Below, in pieces: positions 4,457 through 36,589 of a stretch of 37,380 nt of DNA. How positions within the stretch are numbered: position 1 is the stretch's first letter; every line of letters begins with the position of its first letter. The position numbers were made by a program, and so were the translations under genes. The notes under the pieces were generated by a model that saw nothing but the letters and a program-made list of their open reading frames with translations, had not been told where the DNA came from and did no database searches. Source of the DNA: Saccharomonospora saliphila YIM 90502. GTDB lineage: Bacteria; Actinomycetota; Actinomycetes; Mycobacteriales; Pseudonocardiaceae. The DNA lies in NCBI RefSeq assembly GCF_000383795.1, contig NZ_KB912640.1:289731-327110 (forward strand), in the 5' to 3' direction.

Positions 4457-4513
4457 ATGAGCGACCCGCACTCCAGTCAAGGCCCGTTCGGGCACGCTGA
4501 GCCGACGCGCTAA
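4457..4513 (+). CDS. Possible 18-residue ORF with a strong ribosome site
   Basis: An ATG preceded by TGGAGG (8-9 bases upstream) opens an 18-codon frame (MSDPHSSQGPFGHAEPTR) ending in TAA, about 30 bp before the tRNA. The ribosome site is better than that of most genes here. It could be a short leader, or the surviving start of a gene lost from the backbone. No family is recognisable, and chance cannot be excluded for so short a frame. Confidence 0.3.
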   Translation: MSDPHSSQGPFGHAEPTR

Positions 4514-6524
4514 GGTGTGAGGCGGAGTCGAGGAACTCGACTGCCCTCGTAGCTCAGGGGACAGAGCACCGCTCTCCTAAAGCGGGTGTCGCAGGTTCGA
4601 ATCCTGCCGGGGGCACGTACAGCATCTACACTCCCCGCGCCTGCTGGCTGAGCAGGCGTGTTGTGTGTAGATGGCATGGTTTGAGTGATCCTTTCTGCCG
4701 CGTGGGCGATGTGGGGTAGGTCGTCGGCGGGCAGCTTGATCGTGATGGTCACCTCGTCGCTGTCGCCGTTGAGCGCCACCGTGAGTTGGGTGGTCTCGAA
4801 CAGCCGCCGCAACAGCGCTTCGGGGGCGTGGGCGAGGTTCAGCGCCAGGTACGGCAGGTGATCGAGTAGCGCGGTGTCGTCGATGCCGGGTTTGATGGAC
4901 TCGGCCTGGTCGGCGGCGTCCAGCTCGGCAATAGCGGCCAATGTAGCGTTCTTCTGGGCTTCGAGATCGTTGTAGCTGCCGCGCAGGCCCTTGGTGAACG
5001 GGTCGTCGGGGTCGCCGTCGGCGGCTTGCCGCAGGATCGAGTCCTGCCGTCGGGCGATGTCGGCGAGCACCCGTTGCAGCCGTTCCCGCTCGGCGTGCCG
5101 CTGCTGGGCTTCGCGGTCATCGACGCTGTCCAGCTCGGCGGCCAGCAGCTCGCGCCGCTGCTGGCCGAATACCCGGTCGGCGAAGAACCGCGACACGGCA
5201 TCCAAGATCGCGTCTTCGCGGAGGTAGACGGTCTTGGGATGGCCTGCGTCCGTGTCCGGGCGACCTCGGTTGTTGTTCCTCGGCCAGCACATGTAGTAGG
5301 CGCTGTTGCGGCGTTGGTTGCCGAACATTCGCCGCCCGCAGGCACACAGCACCATGCCGCGCAGCAGATAGCTCCGCCGTGTAGCCGGGTGGGCGTTCTT
5401 GTCCCCGCCCGCCCGAGAGCCGCGCTTGGCTTGCCGCTGCGCGGTCATCTCATCGAACATCCACTTCGGGATCAGCGGCTCGTGGGTCGGCTCCGGCGAC
5501 CACACCCACTTGACCGGATCGTTGACCTTGCCGTGCCGCGAGCGGGAAGCGCGCCGGTTGAACACCTGATACCCGGTGTACTTGGGGTTCTTCAGGATCT
5601 CGTAGACGCTGGTCTTGCCCCACGCACCCCGCGCTCGCGTCTTGCCCGGCGGCTCCGGCGGTGGGTACTTGACCGGATCGGCGTTGAGCCGTTCGGCGAT
5701 GGTGTCGTAGCCCAATCCCTCGTGGTAGCGCCACTTCGCGATCTGCGCGACGGTCTCCGCTCGCACTCCGTCAGGCTCCAAGCGGCTCTTGGTGTGCCCG
5801 CGTGCGGCCTTGGTCGGATTGGGGTGCCGGTAGGTCTTGGCCTTGTACCCATAGGCGGGTTTGCCGATGTTGTAGCCCTCCCGGACGTGGGTGCACAGCC
5901 CGCCCCACGATGTTCGAGGGTGTTGAGGACTTCGTACTCGGCCACGGACTGGTTGATGCGGCGCTGCAACACCCGCTGCGCCCGACTCCCGCTCACGGTG
6001 ATCGGCTCGTTCGAGGCGAACAGCGGCGTCTCAGCCTTCTCTAGCTCCCGCTCGACCGACAGCCCCTCGTAGGCGCGGCGGGCCACACGGGAGATGGACT
6101 CGCAGATCACCACATCGAACCGGCGGCCGGGATGCGCGGCCTCGGCCAGCAGATCAGCGATACCGCCGTCGCGGGCGATGGGGATGTCGAACCGTTCGTA
6201 GTTCTCCCCGTGCCCGCGTGCGTCCAGTTCCATGCGGCCGGATTCCACATCGTAGAAGTGCGCCACGATCACCCACGACTCGGGAATCGCGGTCTTGCAG
6301 TTGCCCAACTGCCGCTGCAACGACTGACGCGGGTCTTGCTGGTCCTCAGTAGAGGTTCGGCCGATGAACGCTACGCGCACCTCGTCCCGCAGCAGAGCGG
6401 TGGGCATTCCCAGCGGCGAGACCGCATAGTCCGACAACCCGGACGGTCCCGACTCCGGCGCGGCCCGTCGGGTCAGCGCCGGAGCGGGGGGGGGATTCGC
6501 CACGGGTTCCTCCGAGGTCGTCAT
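4510..6524 (-). pseudogene. Large serine recombinase, split by a one-base frameshift and overlapping tRNA-Arg
   Basis: The 5' part (from 6524) encodes the resolvase-type catalytic domain with the nucleophile Ser in VAFIGRTSTEDQ (about Ser58), then DVESGR and SRVARR. Near 5911-5916 the frame is lost: the family continuation WGGLCTHVREGYNIGKPAYG is in the next frame, as if one base after GAACA were deleted. The 3' part encodes the Recombinase domain (YEILKNPKYTGYQVFNRR), a zinc ribbon (CACGRR...YYMC), a coiled coil and a variable tail. Its last 36 or so codons are antisense to tRNA-Arg and end at 4510, inside backbone DNA. Intact, it would be about 670 residues and catalyse integration and excision. 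The frameshift could be a sequencing error, but as given the catalytic and DNA-binding parts are separated. Confidence 0.85.
4543..4615 (+). tRNA. tRNA-Arg (anticodon CCT)
   Basis: A 73-nt cloverleaf. The acceptor stem GCCCTCG pairs with CGGGGGC (one T-G pair) and is followed by discriminator A. The D arm is GCTC..GAGC, and the anticodon stem CCGCT/AGCGG encloses loop CTCCTAA, giving anticodon CCT. The T arm is GCAGG TTCGAAT CCTGC. CCA is not encoded. It sits at the junction of backbone-like genes (left) and accessory DNA (right), and is the likely integration site of the element whose recombinase gene crosses it on the opposite strand. Confidence 0.95.
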
Positions 6525-7300: not shown

Positions 7301-8671
7301 TTAGGCGGGGCGCTTCCACCGCTGTCCGGGCGACGCGGTCGCCCGGGGCGTGGGGTTGGTCGCGTCCTGCTCGGTGTCGGGGTCGGTGAGTACCAGGTCG
7401 CCGAAGTCGTGGCCGTGCCGGTTGGCCTCGCGCATCGCGTCGGTGGTCCCGTCGCGGTAGGTGCCCTCGTCGTCCTCGTCGCCGTCGAGCACGGGTACCG
7501 CTCGGCGTCGGGTGGCCAGCTCGCGCAGCACGATCGGGGCGCCGGTATCGGTGGTGCCGCCGATCCGGGCGGGCAACTCGCCCAGCCGCACTCGTGTGGC
7601 GTGCTCAGGCACGGCCGTGACCACCGACCACACCGCGCCCGCCGGACCGTCCGGGTCGCCGTGATCGCGAGCGGCGGTGGCCACCGGCACCAGGAAATGC
7701 TTGGCCTGCAACGCTGTCCGCAGGTTCTGTTCGCGGCGGGCGCTGGTGGTCCAGATCAGCACCATGCCCGCCAACCGCGCCGGGTCGTAGCGGTTGCTGT
7801 GCGGCTGATCCGCGCCCATGTAGCGATCGAGCTTGTCCACCACCCGGCGCACCGGTTCAGTGCCGGTGTCGTGCTCCAGGAAGAACCCCAACCACGTACC
7901 GTCCTGGTACCAGCAGCCGTAGCCATCGGGGCCGATCTGGTGCTCGTAGAACTCGGTGATCCACTGCTCCGAGCGCCACGTATGCAACCCTTCGCCCTCC
8001 GGTCGCCCGTCATACGCCGAGAACGGCGCGCCCAATCCGCTACGGCGGCAGTAGTCGGCCAGGTCGGCGAAGAACTGGTTCACGCCCAGTAAGTGACCCA
8101 GCCGGGGCGATTCGAGGATGCGGCGCAGCCGGTCGGCGTGCGTGGCCGGACGCGGCGCCATCGTGCCGCGCTGCGCGGCCAGCAGTTCGGCGCCGCGATA
8201 GCCAAGCAGGTAGTGAAACGGCTTCGAGCCGCCTTCGGCGCGATACGGCTGCGTGCGCCACAGCACGCCAGCCTCAGTCAGCGCCAGCAGCCGATGCTGC
8301 GCGCGTGAGATCGACGGGAACAACAACGCGCGAAGCTGCTCGGTAGTCAGAACATGATGCTCCGCCACGAGTTCGAGCACAGTTCGATCGCGAGGCGTGA
8401 GCTGCGCCCACAGTGCCCCGTCCGGTTCTCCGGCTGCCGCTTTGCGGCTGCGCCCCCGCAGGGCAGACGTGGAAAGAGACTGATTGTGACCAATCAGTCG
8501 GGAACGCGCGGCACGGGACTTGTCCCCGCCCTGACCTGCGCCAGCGCGGCCAGCGCCCCCTGCGGATGCCCCGGCGGCCCTGGGACGCACCGCACCCGCA
8601 GCCCCATCCGTAGAGCCACCCGCCACGCCAGCCGCGCGGGCTTGTTCGTCCTTGTCATTGCGGTCAGCCAT
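7301..8671 (-). CDS. Replic_Relax (replication-relaxation) family protein
   Basis: About 456 residues. A low-complexity Ala/Gly-rich N-terminus (about 1-75) precedes a winged-helix region (LTPRDRTVLELVAEHHVLTT, then EQLRALLFPSISRAQHRLLAL). The conserved Replic_Relax core follows (HLLGVNQFFADLADY, WITEFYEHQIGPDGYG, FFLEHDTGTEPVRRVVDKL). The family is carried by actinobacterial plasmids and integrative elements and is thought to act in replication or DNA relaxation, though its biochemistry is poorly defined. I prefer ATG 8671, since GGGGTGGTGAG lies just upstream; GTG 8680 would add three residues. It is divergent from the pPIWI-RE operon, and the GAGAC/GTCTC array lies about 65 bp beyond its stop. 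Confidence 0.8.
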   Translation of the reverse strand: MADRNDKDEQARAAGVAGGSTDGAAGAVRPRAAGASAGGAGRAGAGQGGDKSRAARSRLIGHNQSLSTSALRGRSRKAAAGEPDGALWAQLTPRDRTVLELVAEHHVLTTEQLRALLFPSISRAQHRLLALTEAGVLWRTQPYRAEGGSKPFHYLLGYRGAELLAAQRGTMAPRPATHADRLRRILESPRLGHLLGVNQFFADLADYCRRSGLGAPFSAYDGRPEGEGLHTWRSEQWITEFYEHQIGPDGYGCWYQDGTWLGFFLEHDTGTEPVRRVVDKLDRYMGADQPHSNRYDPARLAGMVLIWTTSARREQNLRTALQAKHFLVPVATAARDHGDPDGPAGAVWSVVTAVPEHATRVRLGELPARIGGTTDTGAPIVLRELATRRRAVPVLDGDEDDEGTYRDGTTDAMREANRHGHDFGDLVLTDPDTEQDATNPTPRATASPGQRWKRPA

Positions 8672-8976
8672 GCTCACCACCCCGTGTCGTTCGGACCTGT
8701 ACTCGCCCCTGAAGTCCGAAAAACACGGGGGTATTGGCCCGCAACCACCAAAAATGTGAGCAAGGTCATAACTCGACAGGGCGGCGTGACGGCACCGTGA
8801 ACAGCGACCGATGACCGATCGGCCTCACCTATTCTGCCAGGGACCGCGGCAGGACAGCAGGAGCGCCTGCGACTCGCACTGGAGCGAGACTTCCGATGAG
8901 CAAACTCAGCATCAACATTAGGTAGCAGCCCGCTACTCTACGCAACTACCGGCGTTGATGTCGGTGGGTGCCGTTA
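8672..8976. other. Divergent intergenic region between Replic_Relax and the pPIWI-RE operon
   Basis: About 300 bp without a gene. It must contain promoters for both directions, but no clear -35/-10 pair stands out. A small inverted repeat, GTAGC (8922-8926) and GCTAC (8932-8936), lies about 40-55 bp before the pPIWI-RE start and could be an operator. Confidence 0.45.
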
Positions 8977-10128
8977 GTGTCTAACGCCGTGCATGCGAAT
9001 GACGCTGACCTTCGTTCCGACAGGCGTGTGACGACGGCTGCCTTGCGGGCGGCCGTGGCGTGGACGCGCCGCGACTCGGAGGCTTACGCGTGGCGTGAAT
9101 TGTCGCGCATGACGGGCGTGGTGTCGCACGTCCTCGGTCCCGGTCGCGGCCCTGCGGGGCCGTTGGACCTGGTCCGGTTCTTGCAGGGACCGCTGTCTGA
9201 ACTGTTGCCTGGTGCCGACGTGCCTGATGCGCTCGGGAATCTTGTTCTCCTCGATCGGTCAGGGGAGTTGACCGATGGGGCCGTCGAGGTGGGCTGCGAG
9301 TACACGGAGGCGTTGTTCGAGGCCGTGGATGATCCCGCCCAGCAATGGTTGCCGTCGTGGGCATGGCAGCGAGCGGAACAAGTACAGCGCGCGGTTTTCG
9401 ATCGTCTGATCAGCTCTGGGAACACCCAGGACTACACCGTGAGCCGACGGTTCTTGATCGAGCATCCCGCCGGCGATGAGCGGGAGCTGGTGGAGCTCAG
9501 AAACGCGGCCGGCGCTCTGCCGGTGGCTCACTATGACCAGATCCCGCCCGACCGTGTGTACGGAAACCACGGTGGTACATGGTGGTGGCCATGCCCGGTC
9601 TGCCGGTGGCCGATGCGTGTCAACGGCGAGTCCGTGGAGTGCGGCTACAGCCATCACGACGCACGGTTTCGCCTCGATGTCACTGAGGCGGACCGAACCA
9701 CCTCCCCGCGGTTGGTGAAGGTGTCGCCGGCCCGGCTGCGCACGCCGCAGGCCAGGGAAGCGGATGGGGCGCGCTGCGTCGACTTGGCCGTGTGGCGGTT
9801 CGTCACGGTTCCCGGTGTGCCAGAGCTGGAGTTGGAGCGACGCCTGCTGCGCGTTGGCGGTGTGGACGTGCGGATGTGGCCGGATCTGGATCGCGTCGAT
9901 CTCGTGGCACGCACGAAATCCGGGCGGAAATGGGAGATCGATGTGAAAGACCATGCTGACTTGAACACCATCGTGAACAACGCTCCCGCGGCGCGGGATG
10001 TCGTCGTCCCCGATTACCGGCGTGCCCAGGTACGACCGTTGGCTCGGGCCTTGCCCGACAAACGAGTCTGGGCGGTGAGTAGCTTCGTGCGCCACGTCCG
10101 CAAGCAGACGGGAGAAGCGTCGGCATGA
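8977..10128 (+). CDS. pPIWI-RE system REase-fold protein (pPIWI_RE_Y/REase type)
   Basis: About 383 residues. The N-terminal half is helical and matches the expected pPIWI_RE_Y region. A zinc ribbon follows, with CPVC at 206-209, Cys222 and nearby His226/227. The C-terminal domain has a restriction-endonuclease-like core: Asp308 in DLDRVDLVA, then EIDVKDH with Asp322 and Lys324, a plausible metal-binding D...D-x-K site. Proteins of this type are the nuclease partner in the three-gene pPIWI-RE island. I prefer GTG 8977, with GGTGGG 7 bases upstream; GTG 8968 is an alternative. It overlaps the helicase gene by 4 bp (ATGA). Family assignment rests on motif order and the neighbouring genes. Confidence 0.78.
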   Translation: MSNAVHANDADLRSDRRVTTAALRAAVAWTRRDSEAYAWRELSRMTGVVSHVLGPGRGPAGPLDLVRFLQGPLSELLPGADVPDALGNLVLLDRSGELTDGAVEVGCEYTEALFEAVDDPAQQWLPSWAWQRAEQVQRAVFDRLISSGNTQDYTVSRRFLIEHPAGDERELVELRNAAGALPVAHYDQIPPDRVYGNHGGTWWWPCPVCRWPMRVNGESVECGYSHHDARFRLDVTEADRTTSPRLVKVSPARLRTPQAREADGARCVDLAVWRFVTVPGVPELELERRLLRVGGVDVRMWPDLDRVDLVARTKSGRKWEIDVKDHADLNTIVNNAPAARDVVVPDYRRAQVRPLARALPDKRVWAVSSFVRHVRKQTGEASA

Positions 10129-13100
10129 ACGATGACGAGGAACTGGATCTCGGGGCTGTCGAGTTCGTTGTCGGTGGAGCTTTGGGTCTAGCGGCTCATT
10201 TCTTCCCCCGGGTAGGTAGTGATTCCACGACCTATGTCGACGTGGCGGATGCGTGTTTTCTGTTGTCGGGGCAGGTTGAGGTGTGGTCACGGTGGCCGAA
10301 GTTGGACCGCGTGGATCAAGTCCGGATCGCCCGGCTGTTGCGATTCCGCCCGGTCGAGGTCGCCAACCGGAACGTGTTCGCCGACCTCGTCGAGACCCTG
10401 GTTCCACGGCGCATCGCGGGTTTCCGTGTGCTGGACCGTGATCGGCTGGTTGTCGACTTGGGGCGAGCGCCGTTGGACTATGTGGACGAATGCGTGGCGG
10501 CACTCATGGCCGAGCGCGAGTTTCAGGAGCGCCGGGCCGCGAGTGTCGCCACGACGGGCTCGTACGGCACCCCGCTTTATGTTCCTGGTGCTGATCGCAG
10601 CCGCACGCGCACCGTGGACGTGCGCTATGAGTTGACGATCGCCGACGAGGTATCGCCGGAACGACCGATCTCGTTGGGGCCGCCGGCTGAGTCGGACGTC
10701 GTGAAGGTGCCGGTCTCGGAGTTGCGTGAGATCGCGATGCGGCTGGATGACGCCTTCGGCCACGAGCACCGGACTCGGTCAGTCGATGAGATTTTCACGC
10801 ATCTTCGAACCGGTGACGGCGAAGACGTGGGCGAGATGTGGTCGCTGCGCGCCGGGCCTACCCGCGTGCTGCAGGCCCCCACGGGGGCTGGCAAGAACGT
10901 GCTCGCCGAGTTGCTGGCCTGCTGGTGTGCCGAGAACGGCCTCGTGACCAGCATGGTCGTACCGACCAACGCCACCGTGGTGCGGACGGCCTACAGCATC
11001 GAGCGAAGCCTGCGGGCACTGGAGATCGACGGCGAGGTCGTGCCGTTGACCTCGCCGAATTCGGCACAGCAGGTCGCGGAAACCACCGCGCGCGGAGCTG
11101 GTTCGGATGGGCTGGGCCTGTGGGCGATGGACCGACTCGCCTACGGGTGTTCGCTCACGCCCGCAGCTGTCGCTGAGGAAGCGGTCGATGCCTGGGATCC
11201 TGGCCGCGAGCCGTGCGCGAATCTGCGCAAGGTGGGCCCCGACGGTCGAGTCTCGGGTAGCCGCTACACCTGTCCATGGAAACCCTCGTGCGGCAAGTAC
11301 CGCAACGCGCGTCAGGCATCTACCGCGTCGGTGATTGTGACCTCCCATGTGAACTGGCTGGTCGGGGCGCTCCATGTGCCGGTGGAGGCGCAAGGCCGCA
11401 TCGAGGAGAACATCCGGATCGAAGAGTTGTTGCTGCACCGCAGTGACCTCGTCCTCATCGATGAGATCGACGACTTTCAGGCCAAGATGATCAACCAGAG
11501 CGCCCACGGCCTTCTGCTGGCGCATCGTCGGCGCCGTGCGACGCCGCCGCCGTTGCGGCAGCTCGATGGAGAGCTCAACGATGCCTCGGGACGTGTCGAT
11601 TCATCGATCGAGCACGCTGTCCGGGCCGCGACCGCGCAGGCCCGATACCTTGCCGAGAACTACACGGGGCATCTCTCCGAAGGCGAATTCCGGCGGCAAC
11701 GTCGCAGCCGGAAGAACGGGCACCCCATGTTGGAACGCTGGCTGTTGCCGCGGAAGTGGGATGGGTGGCTCGCCGCCACGCTGTTCGGGCTCGCTGACGG
11801 TGAGCAGCCACAGCGAGTCCACTACGAGGCTTTGCAAGGGCTCTTTCCCGACGAGGGCGACCCCGAGCGAGTCCCGGATTGGCTACGGCCGATCAGGGAC
11901 GCATTGGCCCAGGTCACGAGCCTCACGACGGGCGATGACGAGTTTCAGCGTGCCAGGAACCGTATCTATGCGACGTTGGGTGAGTGTCCGTATGAGGGCA
12001 CTCGGTTAGCCGAGGAAGAGCATCGCGCCACGGCGACTGACCGGCTGATTCGACGCGCTTACCTCGAACGTCTCCGTGCCTTGCTGTTCCGGTTCGTCTA
12101 CGCGGCACCGCAGTTGCAGGCATCAGGTGTGCATTCAGCGCGCGAGATCGCCGAAGCGCTGGGGCAGTACGCCGCCTGGCGCGCGGCACCATACGGGCCG
12201 CTCGGTCGATCGTTGTTCGCGTTCACCGAGCACTACGACCCCGATCGGCCCAACGACACCGCGTTGCGCGTGAACGCGTTTGGCGGCGATCCGCACAGTT
12301 ACGTCACCGCGCTCGGAGAAGTGACCGCGTTCGCGCACCTGGGGCGGCCCCGAGCCGTGCTCGGCCTGTCCGCGACCTCGTATTTCCCTGGCGCGCCCCA
12401 CCATCACGTGTTCACGCGCCCAAGCTGGTGGGTCGCCGACGATCACACCGGTGGCGTGCGGCTGAAGGCATCACCGATTTCGGACGAGGAACGCGAGTTC
12501 CTGCGCGTCTCCGGCACCTACGGGAAGACACGCACCGCGGTGTTGGTCAAACTCGGTGAGTTGCTGTGGAAAAAGCACCTTGCCCCGGCCGTGCGCAACC
12601 TCGCGGCGAATCCCGAGACCGCTCACCGGCAGCGGTTGTTGCTGGCCACGACCTCCTATCAGGGAGCGCGTGACCTCGCCGAGGGCATCAGCAACGCCGG
12701 GGTGCCCGCGGAACGCATCGTCGTGGCCGTGCCCGCCGACGACACCGGTCCGCGGCAGACCGGCCGATGGGTGGAGCTACCTGCCGACCAGCTCGAATCG
12801 TTCGGCCGCGATGTCGACGGGACGGTGCTCATCGCGCCGCTCGCCCGCGTGCAGCGCGGGCTCAACATCGTCGACCACGACGGATCGTCGCTTCTCGGGT
12901 CGGTCTGGCTCGTGGTGCGGCCAGTGCCGCTGGTGGATGAGCCTCCGGAGATCTTGGCGCATGTCCACGCCCGTGCCCGCTCAGCGATCCGCCCGAGCAC
13001 AGACCCCACCGCCGTGTTGGACATCGTGCGCCAGGTCGCTGGGCGTCACTTCGAGGAACTGTTCACCACGCTCCCGTACTTCACGACGCTGCCTGGGGAA

Positions 13101-13373
13101 ACCCAGCTGGCGATCGTCGCTGAAACCCTCAACGGCCTGATCCAGCTTGCCGGGCGCGCACGACGCGGCGGAGCCATCGGCGAGATCCATCTCGTCGACT
13201 ACGCCTTCCTCGACACCCGGGCACAATCCGACCTGCCGAGCCTCATCAGGAGGCTGCGTCAGCACTGGCACGACCACGGCCAGTTGGATCTGCTGCGGCA
13301 GTTGTACGGCCAGACCTTGGACGAGATCTTCACCTTCGCCGACAACCGGGAGGACAACGGTGACGACGACTGA
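10125..13373 (+). CDS. pPIWI-RE-associated DinG-like superfamily 2 helicase (pPIWI_RE_Z)
   Basis: This 1082-residue protein has Walker A APTGAGKN at 251-258 and a DEAH-like box in DLVLIDEIDD at about 442-451. Between them are four cysteines at 342, 364, 383 and 389, placed like the iron-sulfur cluster ligands of DinG/XPD helicases. The C-terminal helicase half includes LLATTSYQGARDLAEG and a motif-VI-like region LIQLAGRARRGG. Burroughs, Iyer and Aravind described a DinG-type helicase as the second constant member of the pPIWI-RE island. It presumably unwinds DNA or R-loops for the PIWI and nuclease subunits. It overlaps the genes on both sides, by 4 bp upstream and 14 bp downstream, indicating one operon and possibly one complex. 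Confidence 0.85.
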   Translation: MNDDEELDLGAVEFVVGGALGLAAHFFPRVGSDSTTYVDVADACFLLSGQVEVWSRWPKLDRVDQVRIARLLRFRPVEVANRNVFADLVETLVPRRIAGFRVLDRDRLVVDLGRAPLDYVDECVAALMAEREFQERRAASVATTGSYGTPLYVPGADRSRTRTVDVRYELTIADEVSPERPISLGPPAESDVVKVPVSELREIAMRLDDAFGHEHRTRSVDEIFTHLRTGDGEDVGEMWSLRAGPTRVLQAPTGAGKNVLAELLACWCAENGLVTSMVVPTNATVVRTAYSIERSLRALEIDGEVVPLTSPNSAQQVAETTARGAGSDGLGLWAMDRLAYGCSLTPAAVAEEAVDAWDPGREPCANLRKVGPDGRVSGSRYTCPWKPSCGKYRNARQASTASVIVTSHVNWLVGALHVPVEAQGRIEENIRIEELLLHRSDLVLIDEIDDFQAKMINQSAHGLLLAHRRRRATPPPLRQLDGELNDASGRVDSSIEHAVRAATAQARYLAENYTGHLSEGEFRRQRRSRKNGHPMLERWLLPRKWDGWLAATLFGLADGEQPQRVHYEALQGLFPDEGDPERVPDWLRPIRDALAQVTSLTTGDDEFQRARNRIYATLGECPYEGTRLAEEEHRATATDRLIRRAYLERLRALLFRFVYAAPQLQASGVHSAREIAEALGQYAAWRAAPYGPLGRSLFAFTEHYDPDRPNDTALRVNAFGGDPHSYVTALGEVTAFAHLGRPRAVLGLSATSYFPGAPHHHVFTRPSWWVADDHTGGVRLKASPISDEEREFLRVSGTYGKTRTAVLVKLGELLWKKHLAPAVRNLAANPETAHRQRLLLATTSYQGARDLAEGISNAGVPAERIVVAVPADDTGPRQTGRWVELPADQLESFGRDVDGTVLIAPLARVQRGLNIVDHDGSSLLGSVWLVVRPVPLVDEPPEILAHVHARARSAIRPSTDPTAVLDIVRQVAGRHFEELFTTLPYFTTLPGETQLAIVAETLNGLIQLAGRARRGGAIGEIHLVDYAFLDTRAQSDLPSLIRRLRQHWHDHGQLDLLRQLYGQTLDEIFTFADNREDNGDDD

Positions 13374-15864
13374 CGGCGGCCTGCACACCCTAACCTACCA
13401 GGTCGATCCCGACGCGCTGGGCCAGTTGGCGCTGTACCCGTTGACCTCGTCCTTTCGTTCAGCGTGGGACCACTTCGAGCAGACGGTCAAACGCCGGAAC
13501 AACCGGTGGGACGTCACCCCGCGCTACTCCAACCTCGCCACTGCGCTCACAGCGGTCACCGGGCAACCAGTACGGCTGTTCCCAACCAAGGACCTCTCCC
13601 GCGCACAAAAGAGCGCGGGGGTCGACTCACTGTTGGTGACAACTGAGCCGATCGACCCGTGGCTGTTGACCATCGCCGTACGCACGTTTGAACGCCTCTC
13701 CCTGGACAACGAGAACGCGGACACGCTTGCCGAGCACCTGACCGGGCTCACCCCCGAGATCACTAACCTCTCCGAATACGTCGACTATTCGGACGGGCGC
13801 GTGTCCGCACCTGGCTGGATTTATCGCATCGCACAGTGGAACCTCGCCGCGACGATCGCGGAGCAACCGCTGCTCATCGACGGGCACCTGCCCATTGCGC
13901 TTCGCCTGGATTCCGAAGCCAACCTCGTCGCCTGGGACGACCCCATCAGCCGTACCTGGAGCAACGGGCCTCGCCACGCGACGGTCTACCTCGACACTCG
14001 CATCGTCACCTTGCCCGGAGCCGCCCACCTCTGCCTACGCATTGATGCGCACGTGGCACGCATGCCGCACACCTGGTGGAACGTCAAAACCGCATGGATC
14101 GCACCGAACGACGACCATCAGCCACTCCTGCGCTTGCCTGTGCGCGGCCCGTGGCCAGCGAAAGGGCAGCCGAATCCCCTCTATCGCGACCACGTGGTCG
14201 ACATCCTCCACGCCTGCCAACTCAATCCCTTGCCGAACCTGCCGGATGCTCCCGTCCACGAACCGACGCCGGTGCGATTGATCGGCAATCCCTCGACTCA
14301 CCCGATCGGTAAAGCCCCCGGAGCACGGTTCCTTTTCCAAGCTCAGCAACAGCTTCAGCAGCGCCTGGGACTTCCCGAGCCCGCCTACCGGCGCACCAAG
14401 ATCACCGCCCGCACAGCCGCCACGGGATTCGTCCCGGCCAGCAAGATCGATCAAGCTGTCCGCGTATCGGGCACCGCTCGAATCCGGATCGTCTGCCTCT
14501 ATGGCGACCAGGCCACACGTCGCCGCATGATCGACGCACTCGCCACCTACACCACTACGGAAACGAACCCACTCGTCGGGGTCGCCGACGACGTGCCCAT
14601 CTCCCTGACTCCGCACCTGGCTGCGGTCTTTCATCACGATCCGGAGCTCGTGGCACACGGTGATCACTCGCGTGACCTGGACGGACTCACGTGCCTCACC
14701 GGTGACGACGATCAAGCCGTGATCGCCTGGGTCGAAACCTGGTGGGACGGTTCAGCGGTCGAGCACGACGCCAAGCCCATCCTGCGGACGGAGTTCGGCA
14801 AACGCGGGATCGTCGCGCAGTTCCTCAACTCCAACTACACGGCGAAAACGCCACGCCGCAGGAAAGACGGAACCATCCCGCCCGCAGAAGACCATCCCGC
14901 TCAGAGCGCCCTGCGTGATCTGTTCCGCCAAGCGGGAGTGATCGACGACCGCCTTGCCGCCGCGACCACCAACGACCGCACCGCGCCGCTGTCCCGGGCA
15001 GCGACACTGGTCGGCGTCCACATCCGCCAGCACACCCCGCGCCGCAAGAACGGCAGCAAAGAACCCAACAAGCTCGTCGTCCAAATGGTCGCCATCCACG
15101 CAACACCCGCGGCCGACGAGTCCTGGCACGTCGAAATGTACGACGATGCCGAAGGGTGGATCTCCTATCGACAAGCCAACGCACGCTACTACGCTTCCGA
15201 CATCGGCAACGCCGACCTCAACCGCACCCGCGACAAGGCACCCCTCGTTCGCGAGTACGTCGACCAGGCGCTCAGCGCCCTGCCCCAGAACGTTCCGCTG
15301 GTGGTCTTCGCCGATGCCGAAGCATGTCAGAGCATCTGGCCAGGCCTGACGCATTCTCGCTTCGGCGAGGCCACGGTTCCGGGATCCACCAGCGACCACC
15401 CCGATCTCGCTGTCGTGCGCTGCGCCTCTGAAACAAGGGCGCCGCGCGCAAGCCACCAAGATCACACCCGCCGCGTCACCGACTCGCACAAACCGGACCT
15501 GCCACGCGCGGAAGTCTACGAGCATGAGGAAAACGGGGTGCTGAGCTGGTTGCTCGCCCAGCCCTCCCGCGTCCACCGCTCAGGTGCCGAAGGCCGAGCC
15601 GGTACCGACTACACCCGCTGGACCTTGCCCGAAAACCGCGACCGGTGGATGGAAGGAGACTGGCACGGCCTGGGCGCGATCGAGATCGCCGTGGCCCGCC
15701 CCGGCACCTGGCAACCACGCGACTTGGCCGCCCTCACCGCGCGGCTGTGCAACCAGGCCCCCTCATGGGACGACCGCACCAAGTTGCCCTCACCTTTGCA
15801 CCTGGCGAAATCCTCCGACGAAGACCACCCCGGTCACCCGCCCGATGAGATCGACGAGGCGTAA
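13360..15864 (+). CDS. pPIWI-RE protein (prokaryotic PIWI with R and E signature)
   Basis: An 834-residue protein. The start is GTG 13360, preceded by GGGAGGA. A longer in-frame ATG at 13147 lies deep inside the helicase gene and is rejected. The N-terminal region (SSFRSAWDHFEQTVKRRNNR onward) fits the pPIWI_RE_X domain. The middle (about 355-560) would be the MID-like module. The C-terminal RNase H-fold PIWI domain has VVFADAEACQSIWPGL (Asp652), typical of this family. VVRCASET gives Arg687 and Glu691 near the position of the R and E that name it. Such proteins are predicted to use nucleic-acid guides in restriction of invading DNA. It is the last gene of the operon. Confidence 0.85.
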   Translation: MTTTDGGLHTLTYQVDPDALGQLALYPLTSSFRSAWDHFEQTVKRRNNRWDVTPRYSNLATALTAVTGQPVRLFPTKDLSRAQKSAGVDSLLVTTEPIDPWLLTIAVRTFERLSLDNENADTLAEHLTGLTPEITNLSEYVDYSDGRVSAPGWIYRIAQWNLAATIAEQPLLIDGHLPIALRLDSEANLVAWDDPISRTWSNGPRHATVYLDTRIVTLPGAAHLCLRIDAHVARMPHTWWNVKTAWIAPNDDHQPLLRLPVRGPWPAKGQPNPLYRDHVVDILHACQLNPLPNLPDAPVHEPTPVRLIGNPSTHPIGKAPGARFLFQAQQQLQQRLGLPEPAYRRTKITARTAATGFVPASKIDQAVRVSGTARIRIVCLYGDQATRRRMIDALATYTTTETNPLVGVADDVPISLTPHLAAVFHHDPELVAHGDHSRDLDGLTCLTGDDDQAVIAWVETWWDGSAVEHDAKPILRTEFGKRGIVAQFLNSNYTAKTPRRRKDGTIPPAEDHPAQSALRDLFRQAGVIDDRLAAATTNDRTAPLSRAATLVGVHIRQHTPRRKNGSKEPNKLVVQMVAIHATPAADESWHVEMYDDAEGWISYRQANARYYASDIGNADLNRTRDKAPLVREYVDQALSALPQNVPLVVFADAEACQSIWPGLTHSRFGEATVPGSTSDHPDLAVVRCASETRAPRASHQDHTRRVTDSHKPDLPRAEVYEHEENGVLSWLLAQPSRVHRSGAEGRAGTDYTRWTLPENRDRWMEGDWHGLGAIEIAVARPGTWQPRDLAALTARLCNQAPSWDDRTKLPSPLHLAKSSDEDHPGHPPDEIDEA

Positions 15865-15990: not shown

Positions 15991-17529
15991 GTGGCAGTTC
16001 GTGGTGATGGAACGGATGAGAGCTCGGCGCTGCCCTTGCCGCTGACTCTTGCCGAGCTGGAGCAGTATCTGGCTAGAGCCGCGGACCTACTGCGCGGTAG
16101 CATCGATCAGGCGGACTTCAAGGCGTACATCTTTCCGCTGATGTTCTTCAAGCGGATCAGCGACGTTTACGTCGAGGAGTATAACGCCGCTCTCGCAGAG
16201 TCAGACGGTGACCACGAGTACGCTTCGTTCGCCGAGAACCACCGCTTCCGCATCCCGCAGGGCAGCCTCTGGGAGGACGTTCGGGCTCGGACCGAGAACG
16301 TTGGGCAGGCCCTGGTGACAGCGTTCCGGGAGATCGAGAAGGCCAACCCTGCAGTGCTCTACGGTATCTTCGGCAATGCCGCATGGACCAACAAGGATAA
16401 GCTGCCGGACGCGAAGCTGCGGGATCTTATCGAGCACTTCTCGGCCAAGGATCTGTCCAACGCCTCGGTCTCCCCGGACGTGTTCGGTCAAGCATATGAG
16501 TACCTGATCAAGCGCTTCGCCGATCAGGCGAACAAGAAGGCTGGCGAGTACTACACCCCGCGTCCGGTGGTCTCTCTGCTGGTCAACATCCTGGATCCGC
16601 AGGAGGGTGAAACCGTCTACGATCCGGCGTGCGGCACCGGCGGCATGCTGATCGAGGTCATCGAGCACGTCAAGGCGGCCGGGGGTGACCCGAAGACATT
16701 GTGGGGTCAGCTTTACGGCCAGGAAAAGGTGCTAGCGACGTCCGCGATGGCGCGGATGAACCTGTTGCTGCATGGCATCGAAGACTTTCAGATCGTCCGC
16801 GATGACACACTGCGCATGCCGGCGTTCTTCGACGGCCCACGATTGGCCCGTTTTGACTGTGTAATCGCCAATCCGCCCTTTTCACTCAAAAAGTGGGGTG
16901 AGGAGGCATGGGAGTCGGATCGGTGGGGGCGCCACGAGCTCGGCGGTGTGCCGCCAAAGGGATACGCCGACTGGGCATGGGTGCAACACATGCTGAGCTC
17001 GGCATCGCCCAGGACGGGGCGTGTAGCGGTAGTCCTGCCTCAGGGAGCATTGTTTCGCCAAGGCGCGGAGGCCCGTATCCGGGAGCACGTACTTAAGGCC
17101 GACCTCGTCGAAGCGGTGATAGGTCTGGCATCAAACTTGTTCTATGGCACTGGTCTCGCGGCGTGCGTGCTCATCCTGCGCAAGCGGAAACCCGCGGAAC
17201 GCAAGAACAAGGTGCTGTTCATCAACGGTGAGAAACTATTCAAGCGGGGCCGCAACCAGAACACCCTTGAACCTGAGCATGCCGAGACTCTACTGAAGGC
17301 ATACCACGCGTTCACCGACGAGCCCGGGCTGACCGCCGTCGCGTCACTCGACGAAATTGCCGACAACGGCTACAACCTCAGCATCCCCCAGTATGTCGAG
17401 CCCGCCGACAACGATCAGCAGGTCACGTTGGAGCAAGCCTTGGCCGATCTCGAAGTCGCGCATACCGCCATCCGCGAAACCCGCGCAGCATTGGAAACTG
17501 AACTGACGAAGTGGGGGTTGTCCGCGTGA
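15991..17529 (+). CDS. hsdM: Type I restriction-modification DNA methyltransferase subunit M (first copy)
   Basis: This 512-residue N6-adenine methyltransferase subunit has an N-terminal HsdM_N helical domain (about 20-165). The catalytic domain follows: SAM-binding DPACGTGGML at about 211-220 and catalytic NPPF at about 294-297 in CVIANPPFSLKKW. The start is GTG with AGGAG 9 bases upstream. It begins an operon with a second hsdM (4-bp overlap), hsdS and hsdR, about 126 bp after the pPIWI-RE gene. It is intact in length and motifs. It is clearly diverged from the second M subunit, so the pair is not a recent duplication. Confidence 0.93.
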   Translation: MAVRGDGTDESSALPLPLTLAELEQYLARAADLLRGSIDQADFKAYIFPLMFFKRISDVYVEEYNAALAESDGDHEYASFAENHRFRIPQGSLWEDVRARTENVGQALVTAFREIEKANPAVLYGIFGNAAWTNKDKLPDAKLRDLIEHFSAKDLSNASVSPDVFGQAYEYLIKRFADQANKKAGEYYTPRPVVSLLVNILDPQEGETVYDPACGTGGMLIEVIEHVKAAGGDPKTLWGQLYGQEKVLATSAMARMNLLLHGIEDFQIVRDDTLRMPAFFDGPRLARFDCVIANPPFSLKKWGEEAWESDRWGRHELGGVPPKGYADWAWVQHMLSSASPRTGRVAVVLPQGALFRQGAEARIREHVLKADLVEAVIGLASNLFYGTGLAACVLILRKRKPAERKNKVLFINGEKLFKRGRNQNTLEPEHAETLLKAYHAFTDEPGLTAVASLDEIADNGYNLSIPQYVEPADNDQQVTLEQALADLEVAHTAIRETRAALETELTKWGLSA

Positions 17530-18412
17530 GTGCGACGGACCGCATCACTCAGCGCGAGTTGGAGTCGTATCTCTGGGGTGCAGCGGTGCTGCTGCGCGGA
17601 TTGATCGACGCCGGGGACTACAAGCAGTTCATCTTCCCGCTAGTATTCCTTAAACGCCTGTCCGATGTCTACGACGAGGAACATGCAGCAGCGTTGCAGG
17701 TATACGGCGACGAGAATCTCGCCGATCTGCCGGAGAACCATCGATTCGCCATTCCCGACGGCGCGCATTGGAATGATATTCGCGCGGTGACCCAAAATGT
17801 CGGAGCCACGATTCTCAATGCGATGCGAACGATCGAGAAGGCGAATCCAGACACGCTGCTCGGGGTATTCGGCGACGGCGATTGGGGCAACAAGAGCCTT
17901 CTGCCCGACGCCACGCTCAGAGACCTAATCGAGCACTTCTCCACCAAAACCCTCTCGGTCGCAAATCTTCCGGAAGACGAACTTGGCCAGGGCTACGAAT
18001 TCCTAATCAAGAAGTTCGCCGATGACTCTGGACACACAGCGCAGGAGTTCTACACCAACCGTACCTTGGTGCACCTTATGACAATGATGCTCCGGCCTGA
18101 ACCCGGCGAGAGCGTCTACGACCCAACCTGTGGTACCGGCGGTATGCTCATCTCCACCGCCGCCGAGCTACGCCGCCAAGGTAAGGAGTGGCGCAATCTC
18201 GGACTGTACGGCCAGGAACTAAACTACGGAACCTCCGCTATCGCCCGGATGAACCTGTTCCTGCACGGCATCGCCGACGGACACATTACCCATGGCGACA
18301 CGCTCACCAAACCCGCATTTCTGGACCGCCGCAGCCGGCTCCGTACGTTTGACGTGGTTCTGGCCAATCCACCCTACTCCATCCGAAACTGGAACCGATC
18401 CGCCTTCACTAA

Positions 18413-19263
18413 GAGCTCCTAACGTATTCGGTTGGGGAGTCGGCGCCAGCAGATGATGCTGGTGGCGAGGGTGAGGAGGCCGTGGTGGATGTCGGTGCGG
18501 CGTTCCCACCGGGTGGCCAGGCGGCGGAACTGGTGCAGCAGCGCCAGGGTCTGTTCGACGACCCACCGTGCTGCCTGGACGTTGTCGCGGGTGCCGCGTC
18601 GGCTGATCAACGGGCGGATCCCTCGCCGCCGCAGCGCATCGCGGTAGGTGTCGTAGTCGTAGCCTCGGTCAGCCACGAGCACGTCAGGGTTTGCGGCGGG
18701 GCCTGCCTCGCCGTCCCCGTACCGGTCGGGATGGCCCCGACCAGCGGCAGAAGCTGAGTGATGTCGTTGCGGTTGCCGCCGGTGAGCCGCACCGCGAGGG
18801 GGATGCCCCCGCCGTCGCAGATCACATGGTGCTTCGAGCCGGTCTTGGCCCGGTCGACCGGGCTCGGCCCCGTGTCCGGCCCCCCTTTTCGCGCGCACGT
18901 GCGAAGCATCCACACACGCCCGGGACCAGTCGATGGCCGCGGCCGCGTTCAGCTCCGCCAGCAACACCTCGTGCAACCGGTCGAACACCCCCGCCTCCTG
19001 CCAGTCCCGCAACCGCCGCCAACACGTCATGCCCGAGCCGAAGCCCAGCTCCTGCGGCAGGTCCTCCCACCCGATCCCGGTGTAGAGCACGAACAAGATG
19101 CCCTGCAACACCTGCCGATCCGGCAACGGCTTCGGCCCCGTCCTGCCCGCCGGACGCACCGGCAACACCGGCTCGACCCGCGACCACAACTCATCCGACA
19201 CCACCCACGGCGCACCCACACCAAGACCATCTCAAACCAAGATCATCAATGTGTTAGGGGCTC
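18413..19263 (-). mobile_element. IS5-family insertion sequence, complete copy in hsdM
   Basis: An 851-bp element. Imperfect terminal inverted repeats begin GAGCTCCTAAC on the left and, read inward, GAGCCCCTAAC on the right. It is flanked by a 3-bp TAA duplication (18410-18412 and 19264-19266), typical of the IS427-like group of IS5. Excision in silico restores the hsdM frame exactly, which fixes the ends. A nearly identical copy starts at 37129 in the same orientation. Confidence 0.93.
18419..19219 (-). CDS. IS5-family (IS427-like) DDE transposase with an internally out-of-frame segment
   Basis: One 266-codon frame covers the IS. It has the N-terminal domain (DELWSRVEPVLPVRP, GIGWEDLPQELGFGSGMTCWRRLRDWQ), a first catalytic Asp in CVDASHVRA, a second in VLVADRGYDYDTYRD, and Glu in RWVVEQTLALLHQFRRLATRWERR. 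Between about 18880 and 18710 the family sequence (KGGPDTGPSPVDRAKTGSKHH, HVICDGGGIPLAVRLTGGNRND) is in a neighbouring frame. The long frame therefore carries nonsense in its middle. One shift falls at a run AAAAGGGGGG, where programmed frameshifting is known in this group. The second shift back suggests an additional indel. Activity of this copy is doubtful. Confidence 0.85.
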   Translation of the reverse strand: MGAPWVVSDELWSRVEPVLPVRPAGRTGPKPLPDRQVLQGILFVLYTGIGWEDLPQELGFGSGMTCWRRLRDWQEAGVFDRLHEVLLAELNAAAAIDWSRACVDASHVRAKRGAGHGAEPGRPGQDRLEAPCDLRRRGHPPRGAAHRRQPQRHHSASAAGRGHPDRYGDGEAGPAANPDVLVADRGYDYDTYRDALRRRGIRPLISRRGTRDNVQAARWVVEQTLALLHQFRRLATRWERRTDIHHGLLTLATSIICWRRLPNRIR

Positions 19264-19878
19264 TAAGGACCCCTACGGCCGCAATACCTGGGGAGTCCCA
19301 CCCCAGAACGCTGCTGACTACGCCTTCATTCAGCACATTGCACAGAGCCTTGATCCCAATTCTGGTCGAGCGGCGATCCTCCTGCCCCACGGGGTGTTGA
19401 CACGCGTTTCAGAAGCCTCGGTGCGGCGAGCGATGGTCGAGTCAGACCTCGTTGAGGCAGTCATCGGCCTTGCTCCTGGCCTGTTCTACAACTCATCAAT
19501 GGAGGCGATCGTCCTCGTGCTTCGGGCTCGTAAACCACGGAACCGCCGCGGCCGAGTTTTGTTCATCAACGCAGTCAACGAGTTCGCTCGGGAACAAGCA
19601 CAGTCATTTCTGCGGGAGCAGCACCAACAAAAGATCCTCGCGGCATATGACAATTTCGCCGACGATGAGGGCTTCGCTGCCGTCGTCACTCACGAGCAAA
19701 TCGTTGAAAAGACGTGGAGCCTCGCTATTCCTCTATATGTAAAGTCGCCGAGCAGTGGACGAGCGGCCGCCGGCGTCAATGACATCGAAAACGCTGTCGA
19801 GTCGTGGCGCGACTCCTCCGCCCGGGCAGACACCGCCGTTGAAAGTGCGCTCAATCAGCTCAGGTTGCGGGTGACGCA

Positions 19879-21060
19879 ATGAACCTCGACCTCGCGAAGA
19901 CCGACTGGAAACGAGTTCGGTTGGGAGATGTGATCCGTCGCTCGCGGGTACAGGTAGACCCTGCCAGCGGCAGTGTCGAACGGTATGTAGCAGGCGGGCA
20001 CATCGACGGCGATAGTGTCACGATCGAGCGGTGGGGGGACGTCGATGATGGGCAGATGGGCTCTACATTCCGATACGTCTTCAGCCCCGGGCAGGTTCTT
20101 TTCGTTTCGGCTCGACCTTATCTCCGAAAAGTCGGCGTGCCCGACTTCGAAGGGGTCGTGGCCGACAAGACCTACGTCCTCGACGCCGTCGCAGAGAACG
20201 GTCTACTGCAAGAGTTTCTCCCCTTCATTCTCTCTTCCGACCGATTCGTCGAATACGCAACCGCAGAAGCGACGGGCTCCATGAACCCGCGTCTCCTCTG
20301 GGGACCGATGCAACGCTACGAATTCGACCTTCCGCCCCTCGACGAACAGAAACGACTCTCGGACCTGCTTTGGGCGATCGAGCGCCACGAGCGATCCGTT
20401 CGTTTCTCCGTCGAATCCGCGGAGCTAATTCAAGCTCGACTCAGGTCGAATTTGTTCGAGAAGGAGCGGAATACCGTTCCTGCGCCAGATGCTTTCGATA
20501 TAACTATCGGGCGCCAACGGTCTCCAAGGAATCAGTCAGGCGACCATATGGTTCCCTATATGCGGTCGGCAAACGTGACACCCGACGGCATAGACCTCGA
20601 TAACATGAAGAGGATGAACTTCTCGCCAGAGGAACAAGAAAAGTTCGCCCTGAAAAGTGGTGATGTGCTTGTCTCGGAGGGCAGCGCGAGCGCAAAATCG
20701 GTCGGAATGCCTGCGGTTTGGAGAGGCGAACTCGATCAGGTCGTCTGTTTCCAGAACACGCTCTTGCGCTACCGAGCCGTGCCTGACGTGACCCTGCCGG
20801 GTTTCGTTGAGCAGTGGTGCCGATGGGCCTTCGAGACTGGGGAATTTCGCCGCGCTTCCTCCGGTACAAACATCCACCATATCGGCACCAAGGGGGCGTC
20901 TGCGATGAAGGTTGGACTTCCGAGCATCGAGGAACAAGCTCGGTTCCTCCATGATATCTCTACCATAGGCGAGGCAGTTGCTGCGGCGTCATCTGAATCT
21001 AAGTCGGTTGCTGCCCTCCGTACGGCAGTATCAACTCAGGTCTTCGGAGGCTCCGGATGA
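19879..21060 (+). CDS. hsdS: Type I restriction-modification specificity subunit S
   Basis: This 393-residue specificity subunit has the usual two target recognition domains (about 10-165 and 205-370), each followed by a helical conserved region. The first ends at DLPPLDEQKRLSDLLWAIER, the second at GLPSIEEQARFLHDIS. These place two M subunits and read the two halves of a bipartite site. It overlaps hsdM2 upstream and hsdR downstream by 4 bp (ATGA in both cases). The second recognition domain looks poorer in GC than its neighbours, as expected for recognition domains exchanged by recombination. The target sequence cannot be predicted from the protein. Confidence 0.93.
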   Translation: MNLDLAKTDWKRVRLGDVIRRSRVQVDPASGSVERYVAGGHIDGDSVTIERWGDVDDGQMGSTFRYVFSPGQVLFVSARPYLRKVGVPDFEGVVADKTYVLDAVAENGLLQEFLPFILSSDRFVEYATAEATGSMNPRLLWGPMQRYEFDLPPLDEQKRLSDLLWAIERHERSVRFSVESAELIQARLRSNLFEKERNTVPAPDAFDITIGRQRSPRNQSGDHMVPYMRSANVTPDGIDLDNMKRMNFSPEEQEKFALKSGDVLVSEGSASAKSVGMPAVWRGELDQVVCFQNTLLRYRAVPDVTLPGFVEQWCRWAFETGEFRRASSGTNIHHIGTKGASAMKVGLPSIEEQARFLHDISTIGEAVAAASSESKSVAALRTAVSTQVFGGSG

Positions 21061-26909: not shown

Positions 26910-27001
26910 CCCCAAGCCGCGCCTGCGCCGAGGACGCGCCCCGACCCCCTCGGCGCAGGCGCTCCCACGCACACCGAACTCGACACAGGAGAGGTGCGGT
27001 C

Positions 27002-32228: not shown

Positions 32229-32229
32229 C

Positions 32230-34387: not shown

Positions 34388-34389
34388 GA

Positions 34390-34866: not shown

Positions 34867-35026
34867 GTTACCTAGCTTACGGTCCGCCACTTCGGCCCCA
34901 TTCACGGCAGTCACCTGATCCACGACCGTACGTCACACAGGGAACGAACGGCGTTCTACGCTGGGCCAAAATCCTAGGGCGAACCCTCGATCACCATAAA
35001 GACGATCACGCCATTACCCCAGTGAC

Positions 35027-36398: not shown

Positions 36399-36589
36399 CC
36401 GGCATCACCGCCCTGACGGCGGCGCCGAGCGATCCCGACGGTGGCGGAAACCCGCAGCTCACGACGCGAGCGGTTTGTTGTAGATGCTGTACGAGCCTCG
36501 CCGGGGGCGCCCAGGTCAGAGGATTGCAGGCCAGGTCAGGGACCGTCCGCGTGGTGCCGTGCGTGGTGCGAACGCCTTACTCTCGCACC

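What the first reader, a model, noticed from the sequence alone, without database searches (positions are those of the whole stretch)
8977..15864. Complete pPIWI-RE three-gene defence cassette on an integrative element
REase-fold protein, DinG-like helicase with four well-placed cysteines, and a PIWI protein with the R/E region are all present, overlapping by 4 and 14 bp. The module was predicted computationally as guide-dependent restriction, and few members have been studied. The operon is intact while neighbouring mobility genes are broken, suggesting selection for it.
Basis: partly seen in the sequence, partly recalled or inferred. Interest (0 to 1): 0.7.

Follow-up and report, generated by a model that had tools for sequence, protein, structure and literature searches.

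The report
Inactive-Argonaute helicase–nuclease defence operon
A bacterial genomic island carries an intact three-gene pPIWI-RE operon (a guide-binding PIWI protein that has probably lost its own cutting site, a helicase with an unusual ATP-binding motif, and a DNA-cutting enzyme), a real but little-studied kind of suspected defence against plasmids and phages.

Summary
Window 8977-15864 encodes REase, DinG-like helicase and PIWI genes, overlapping by 4 and 14 bp, that meet the pPIWI-RE models. It lies on a ~31.9 kb island in tRNA-Arg(CCT); one congener shows the empty site. The serine recombinase is frameshifted; the operon is open.

The REase motif is intact. Best model: a guided, non-slicing PIWI brings a helicase and a separate nuclease to the target, as DdmE does for DdmD. 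(2) The helicase Walker A reads GKN in this copy and three sisters; 116 of 117 others have Ser/Thr. (3) Other actinobacterial operons often have a fourth gene: an HTH regulator (57 of 126 loci) or a RecB/Cas4-like nuclease (35 of 126); the 15 scored loci with a lost REase motif all have the latter. The window has neither.

Membership is near certain; the mechanism is inferred. New variant of a known kind.

The parts
4543..4616 (+). tRNA-Arg (anticodon CCT), integration site; left end of the island just after its 3' end
   Evidence: homology with congeners stops at window 4614 in 10 of 11 congeners; the eleventh (G009) matches there only in a piece on another contig
4513..6524 (-). large serine recombinase, split over two reading frames (Resolvase part 5595-6524; Recombinase and zinc-ribbon part 4513-5781)
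7301..8680 (-). Replic_Relax (replication-relaxation) protein, open frame
   Evidence: Pfam PF13814 3.1e-41
8977..10128 (+). pPIWI-RE REase protein: Y domain, zinc ribbon C206/C209/C222, PD-(D/E)xK-type domain with D305, D308, D322, K324
   Evidence: model pLDDT 89.6
10125..13373 (+). DinG-like SF2 helicase (PprDinG); four Cys 342/364/383/389; Walker A GAGKN (N258); DEID 446-449
13360..15864 (+). pPIWI-RE PIWI protein: X, MID, RNaseH domains; H554 at first catalytic position, D652, H814, R687, E775; MID K472 and Q487
   Evidence: model pLDDT 91.6
15991..23990 (+). adjacent type I RM system: hsdM1 15991-17529, hsdM2 (interrupted) 17511-19882, hsdS 19879-21060, hsdR 21057-23990; neighbour, not claimed as part of the operon
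18414..19267 (-). IS5-family insertion inside hsdM2, with TAA on both sides and ends that are near inverted repeats (ends read by eye); transposase 18422-19219
   Evidence: near-identical copies elsewhere in the genome
36500..36508 (.). right attachment core (GCCGGGGGC, shared with the tRNA end); right end of the island
   Evidence: junction with the empty site of congener G010

Best explanation
An intact pPIWI-RE operon carried as cargo of a tRNA-Arg-integrated island. Shown by sequence: the three genes, their order, overlaps and family models; an intact PD-(D/E)xK motif in the REase; an iron-sulfur-type four-Cys SF2 helicase; a PIWI protein with Argonaute fold, conserved MID pocket residues and a substituted first catalytic Asp. 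Inferred: the PIWI protein holds a short guide by its 5' end in the MID pocket, pairs with the target (an R-loop or single-stranded stretch of replicating or transcribed foreign DNA), does not cut it, and recruits or activates the helicase; the helicase opens or moves along the target and the REase cuts the exposed DNA. This is the working logic of DdmDE (inactive Argonaute plus helicase-nuclease) with the parts on three polypeptides. The most likely targets are plasmids and other mobile elements. In this lineage the helicase has Asn in place of the Mg-coordinating Ser/Thr of Walker A, so slow or conditional ATP turnover is likely.
For: Family models met. Order REase-DinG-PIWI in 61 of 65 fetched family loci and 78 of 80 named actinobacterial loci. 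PIWI model closest to TtAgo (5xou_B Z 18.9, rmsd 4.8, 515 aligned) and RsAgo (6d8p_B Z 18.1). Position 554 is never Asp in 125 actinobacterial sequences (H 75, W 37, Y 9, others 4) nor in 11 plasmid-borne relatives from cyanobacteria, proteobacteria and Bacteroidota; in the P. stutzeri protein D525A and D610A abolish cutting (PMC10991935, passages). MID D470 125 of 125, K472 122 of 125, Q487 123 of 125. REase D305/D308/D322/K324 in 107 of 122 including the window. REase model aligned to PD-(D/E)xK nucleases, among them DdmD over 127-381 (8u0u_A Z 5.7, 177 aligned, rmsd 5.0; 9bf1_A Z 5.4, 193 aligned). Low dN/dS against sisters (0.11-0.37). Patchy: 1 of 12 genomes of the genus, 64 of 297 of the family carry PF13032.
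Against: No experiment on this copy or lineage. The only tested member, from P. stutzeri, cuts by itself and its deletion gave a ciprofloxacin (replication) phenotype, not a defence phenotype (PMC10991935, parts 1-2 of 4 and passages). I had no relative with Asp at the first position to anchor that column; it rests on strand position, motif and residue spacing. The DdmD match is weak (Z below 6; Foldseek found no PDB match of the REase at E<=0.001) and profile searches of PDB sequences found no Argonaute, DdmD or REase relative. Window-specific changes at otherwise conserved PIWI sites (A319, Gly in 124 of 124 others; Q657, Arg in 118 of 125) and GKN could mean decay.
Confidence: 0.55

Rival explanations
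1. RNA-guided, R-loop-directed restriction as first proposed in 2013: the PIWI senses RNA-DNA hybrids made by transcription or replication of invaders, DinG unwinds them and the REase cuts; no DdmDE-like recruitment or DNA guide.
For: DinG-like helicases act on R-loops; proposal read in PMC3702460, section 6. P. stutzeri PIWI-RE cleaves only with RNA guide/DNA target or the reverse (PMC10991935).
Against: Not really separable with sequence alone; the two models share most steps. The guide type is unknown here.
Confidence: 0.25
2. A chromosome-maintenance device (replication termination or decatenation), as suggested by the ciprofloxacin sensitivity of the P. stutzeri deletion.
For: PMC10991935 passages.
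Against: Patchy presence (1 of 12 congeners), location on an integrated island and presence of relatives on plasmids of several phyla fit mobile cargo better than housekeeping.
Confidence: 0.1
3. A decaying module: GKN in Walker A, A319 and Q657 in PIWI, and a broken recombinase nearby mark an operon on its way out.
For: Changes at sites otherwise nearly invariant; broken recombinase and hsdM2.
Against: All three frames are open; GKN is shared by three sisters at 61-75% helicase identity, in records named Nocardia, Saccharopolyspora and a Pseudonocardiaceae MAG; dN/dS 0.11-0.37; Q657 is shared with the Nocardia abscessus copy.
Confidence: 0.1
4. PIWI still cuts, with a changed metal site (H554, D652, H814).
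For: H at 554 is the commonest residue (75 of 125) and D652 (73 of 125) and H814 are often kept.
Against: D525A in the P. stutzeri protein abolished cutting; residue 554 is also W, Y, S, C, Q or R in relatives, and 652 is Ser in a whole related clade.
Confidence: 0.07

Closest known systems
pPIWI-RE three-gene systems (Burroughs, Iyer and Aravind 2013, PMC3702460; PADLOC PprRE/PprDinG/PprPIWI)
   Same: Gene order, overlaps, domain models, R/E pair, four-Cys helicase, zinc ribbon and REase motif.
   Different: GKN Walker A (Ser/Thr in 116 of 117 other actinobacterial helicases and 11 of 11 plasmid-borne ones); Leu923 in all four sisters where 117 of 117 others have Ala, although plasmid-borne relatives also show Val or Leu there.
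PsPIWI-RE of Pseudomonas stutzeri (PMC10991935)
   Same: Same family, linked to DinG and a nuclease gene; R and E kept.
   Different: It has the two catalytic Asp residues and cuts alone; the window has His at the first.
DdmDE (plasmid defence of Vibrio cholerae; structures 8u0u, 9bf1, 9bgk)
   Same: Works-like: inactive Argonaute-type protein plus SF2 helicase plus PD-(D/E)xK nuclease; weak structural match of the REase protein to the DdmD nuclease part.
   Different: Three polypeptides instead of two; DinG-type four-Cys helicase; no sequence-profile match to DdmD found in the PDB sequences.

Membership tests
pPIWI-RE three-gene system | PIWI protein with X, MID and RNaseH_pPIWI_RE domains | tested here: met
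   PF13111 1.3e-21, PF18157 1.8e-10, PF13032 2.6e-50; PprPIWI 2.5e-88
pPIWI-RE three-gene system | conserved Arg and Glu of the RNaseH domain | tested here: met
   R687 and E775 present; both 90% or more in 61 aligned proteins; that R687 is the family's R is inferred from spacing to D652 and E775 against R639, D610 and E718 of PsPIWI-RE
pPIWI-RE three-gene system | REase gene with Y domain, zinc ribbon and REase fold | tested here: met
   PF18154 7.1e-18, PF18156 1.1e-14; C206/C209/C222, D305/D308/D322/K324
pPIWI-RE three-gene system | DinG-type SF2 helicase with four cysteines | tested here: met
   PprDinG 5.9e-137; four Cys in 121 of 121
pPIWI-RE three-gene system | Z domain at the helicase N terminus (pPIWI_RE_Z) | tested here: inconclusive
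   no Pfam hit at E<=0.001, yet the PADLOC helicase model aligns from residue 39
pPIWI-RE three-gene system | gene order REase, helicase, PIWI with tight spacing | tested here: met
   overlaps of 4 and 14 bp
DdmDE | Argonaute-type protein without a complete catalytic site | tested here: met
   H554 in place of Asp; no Asp-bearing relative was at hand as an anchor
DdmDE | one DdmD polypeptide with helicase and nuclease | tested here: not met
   helicase and REase are separate genes
DdmDE | homology of the nuclease part to DdmD | tested here: inconclusive
   VIA Z 5.4-5.7 over 127-381; no Foldseek match at E<=0.001
DdmDE | DNA-guided plasmid elimination | not testable with these tools
   needs experiment
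tRNA-integrated mobile island | empty site in a relative and attachment cores at both ends | tested here: met
   G010 joins the tRNA flank directly to window 36502 onward; GCCGGGGGC at both ends. The other two congeners fetched (G003, G001) matched only the tRNA side
tRNA-integrated mobile island | working recombinase and transfer genes | tested here: not met
   recombinase in two frames; no FtsK/Tra-type hit among the window ORFs scanned with Pfam (not every ORF was scanned)

The most novel reading that the evidence does not exclude
The GKN lineage is a distinct pPIWI-RE subtype in which the helicase works as an ATP-gated clamp or very slow motor rather than a processive helicase: the non-slicing PIWI and the clamp hold a hybrid on the target, and the REase is the only catalytic effector. 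More broadly, actinobacterial pPIWI-RE operons would be modular: an inactive PIWI plus helicase core that is served by interchangeable nucleases, either the REase or an upstream RecB/Cas4-like four-Cys nuclease that takes over when the REase site decays.
Probability: 0.25. Interest if true: 0.7.

Novelty: new variant of a known kind. Interest (0 to 1): 0.5.

Why it matters
pPIWI-RE was predicted in 2013 and, in the papers I could search, has one experimental study. The survey here says that, in 125 actinobacterial and 11 plasmid-borne members, the PIWI protein lacks the first catalytic Asp, which makes the one studied, cutting member a poor guide to the family and points to an inactive-Argonaute plus helicase-nuclease logic like DdmDE. 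It also gives directly testable handles: a naturally fixed Walker A Asn, and a fourth gene encoding a second nuclease that is present in every scored locus where the REase motif is lost.

Tried and rejected
Guide source nearby: Rfam found only the tRNA, and the repeat search of 4300-30000 showed no array. Type I RM as part of the system: its HsdM-like neighbours occur in 12 and HsdR-like in 11 of the other 130 deduplicated loci, at no fixed place, so I treat it as a defence-island neighbour. A recurrent downstream partner: none; the best was an NB-ARC/TPR gene with 9 ORFs within 600 bp downstream. Phage-borne copies: no helicase match in the phage collection and none confirmed in viral contigs. 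Solved-structure relatives by sequence: none convincing for PIWI or REase; the helicase profile hit reverse gyrase around Walker A (3.4e-5), E. coli DinG 6fwr at 0.051 and XPD at 0.41-0.56. An exact second copy of the tRNA 3' end in the own genome: not found; the right end was found instead through the empty site. A relative with Asp at PIWI 554 as positive control: sought through plasmid searches, none found. The link between REase decay and the upstream nuclease cannot be tested as independent events: only 2 losses on the tree, both inside the nuclease-bearing clade. Of six further REase proteins too short for the main alignment none reads DDDK; five have the upstream nuclease, the sixth (L070) has only 1.5 kb upstream in hand.
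Full report
Observation. Pfam and PADLOC models identify REase+Y, PprDinG and X/MID/RNaseH domains far above their cut-offs. The helicase has no Pfam hit at E<=0.001, so the Z domain was not confirmed.

Setting. The window lies in contig C53 of a 4.03 Mb, 145-contig genome that is 83.66% complete. The loci of its family include contigs with the same lengths as named Pseudonocardiaceae records (for example L075 and L099, 102319 bases, Saccharopolyspora shandongensis), so the host family is most likely Pseudonocardiaceae (inference). DNA left of 4614 is conserved in the congeners: the main matches of 10 of 11 stop at 4614, the 3' end of tRNA-Arg(CCT), and the eleventh (G009) reaches it only in a piece on another contig. 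In congener G010 the tRNA flank runs directly into DNA that matches window 36502-37129 at 86% (and a second copy 1.9 kb further on), while the two other congeners fetched matched only the tRNA side. GCCGGGGGC stands at both ends, next to an inverted GTACAGCATCTACA arm. The island is therefore about 31.9 kb, from ~4615 to ~36500. It carries a serine recombinase in two frames, Replic_Relax, the operon, a type I RM system whose second hsdM is interrupted by an IS5-family element, a creatininase, an HTH/TPR gene, a Prim-Pol domain ORF, a block of sugar- and nucleotide-type enzymes, and a DUF2637 gene.

Relatives. PF13032 occurs in 1 of 12 genomes of the genus and 64 of 297 of the family. I fetched 65 family loci: all three genes stand in order in 61 of 65. 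A genome scan with the helicase alignment returned the best 80 of 273 confirmed loci; all three genes were found in 78 of 80. All 80 bear actinobacterial names, which also reflects the query. Relatives of the helicase occur on plasmids of cyanobacteria, proteobacteria, Bacteroidota and Streptomyces (26 records); none was found in phages or confirmed in viral contigs.

PIWI. The AlphaFold2 model (61 sequences) has mean pLDDT 91.6. Foldseek's 50 listed matches are Argonaute/PIWI structures (best E 3.6e-14); the second look puts T. thermophilus Argonaute first (Z 18.9, rmsd 4.8, 515 aligned). Residue 554 lies in strand 548-558 and D652 at the end of strand 647-652, the expected places of the two catalytic Asp. 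In 125 deduplicated actinobacterial sequences residue 554 is H 75, W 37, Y 9, S/C/Q/R one each, never D; 652 is D in 73. In 11 plasmid-borne relatives 554 is never D. D525 and D610 are required in the P. stutzeri protein, R639 and E718 are not (PMC10991935, passages); that paper also says that few members keep the full tetrad. I had no Asp-bearing relative to anchor the column. The MID residues D470, K472, Q487, D520 and R523 are kept in 122-125 of 125; I recall K and Q of this pattern as the guide 5'-end ligands of Argonautes.

REase. Model pLDDT 89.6. D305/D308/D322/K324 read DDDK in 107 of 122. Foldseek gave no PDB match at E<=0.001; the second look lists PD-(D/E)xK proteins: Upx 9wuf Z 8.4 (90 aligned), Cdn1, Can2 and Card1 about 6-7, DdmD Z 5.4-5.7 over 127-381. 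Values under 8 may be only a common arrangement.

Helicase. Walker A is GAGKN. Asn at 258 occurs in 4 of 121: the window, a Pseudonocardiaceae MAG (L096/L097), Nocardia abscessus (L098) and S. shandongensis (L075/L099); the other 117 have S 99, T 17, G 1. The 11 plasmid-borne relatives have S or T. The same four have Leu at 923, where 117 of 117 others have Ala; outside actinobacteria that site also shows Val and Leu. All other motif residues checked are kept. The four share 61-75% helicase identity with the window and dN/dS is 0.11-0.37 over the three genes, with dS above 1. In PIWI the window alone has A319 (Gly in 124 of 124 others) and shares Q657 with L098 (Arg in 118 of 125).

Fourth genes. 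Clustering of neighbouring ORFs in 130 deduplicated loci showed two recurrent genes directly upstream of the REase gene on the same strand. Representatives are an HTH_3 protein (L104, 5.2e-12) and PDDEXK_1 proteins (L175 1.9e-15, L037 1.1e-22). With profiles built from them, 57 of 126 loci have the first, 35 the second, 33 neither and 1 neither with a short flank; none has both. The nuclease keeps D393, E406, K408, Q426 and four Cys (285, 499, 502, 508; L037 numbering) in 35 of 35, a RecB/Cas4-like pattern (family pattern recalled). The REase motif is lost in 15 of 28 nuclease-type loci scored, 0 of 51 regulator-type and 0 of 28 others; six short REase proteins scored later also lack it, five of them with the nuclease and one (L070) with too little upstream DNA. 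These are only two losses on the tree. Neither gene is found in the window (any ORF of 40 aa or more) or upstream of the three sisters, which have 8.7-8.8 kb of upstream DNA. In the helicase tree (106 rows; of the four GKN copies only the window and L098 are rows), the pair is sister to four nuclease-type loci, L040, L055, L077 and L175 (support 100, FastTree only).

Mechanism. The anatomy fits a guided, non-cutting PIWI that brings a helicase and a separate nuclease to the target. The review PMC12904381 (passages) describes DdmDE as a guided, catalytically inactive Argonaute that recruits a helicase-nuclease to plasmids (its text exchanges the names DdmD and DdmE, by my recollection). Whether guides are DNA or RNA here is unknown; the 2013 proposal favours RNA-DNA hybrids (PMC3702460, section 6).

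Literature. By name I found 13 papers in the searched library, of which I read the outline, section 6 and passages of PMC3702460 and parts 1-2 of 4 plus passages of PMC10991935; the others I saw only as listings. RecB and Cas4 do not occur in the main text of PMC3702460. I found no description of the GKN variant or the nuclease-type fourth gene in these searches, which cover open-licence papers only and no supplements.

Verdict. A true member of the pPIWI-RE kind, with a lineage-specific helicase variant: new variant of a known kind.

Noticed in passing
L032-L176, directly upstream of the REase gene (for example L037:962-2533, L175:7149-8837): RecB/Cas4-like PDDEXK_1 gene in 35 of 126 pPIWI-RE loci; catalytic and four-Cys residues kept in 35 of 35; present in all 15 scored loci whose REase motif is lost.
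   Followed up: partly
L104:7379-8671 and 56 more loci: HTH_3-type regulator gene directly upstream of the REase gene in 57 of 126 loci, never together with the nuclease gene.
   Followed up: partly
window 15991-19882: Type I RM system with two tandem hsdM genes; the second is interrupted by an IS5-family element, near-identical copies of which lie elsewhere in the genome.
   Followed up: partly
window 36502-37129 and own contig about 1.9 kb further on (38451-39078 in window-based numbering): The DNA right of the island is present twice, next to an IS5-family copy.
   Followed up: no
L188:8003-12814, L189:7903-12706: Bradyrhizobium and Microvirga plasmids annotate the PIWI-RE gene as a very long protein (about 9.3 and 10.2 kb of coding sequence), a possible fusion.
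   Followed up: no
window 26262-34923: Cargo block with a Prim-Pol domain ORF, AAA_18-like, phosphoribosyltransferase, glycosyltransferase 9, SDR, histidine phosphatase, TylF-like methyltransferase and NUDIX genes: looks like a sugar or nucleotide biosynthesis cluster on the same island.
   Followed up: no
G004:C56, G005:C7, G002:C1, G008:C14: Four congeners carry 37-45 bp repeats of the tRNA-Arg 3' end a few to about 11 kb downstream, as if other elements use the same site.
   Followed up: no
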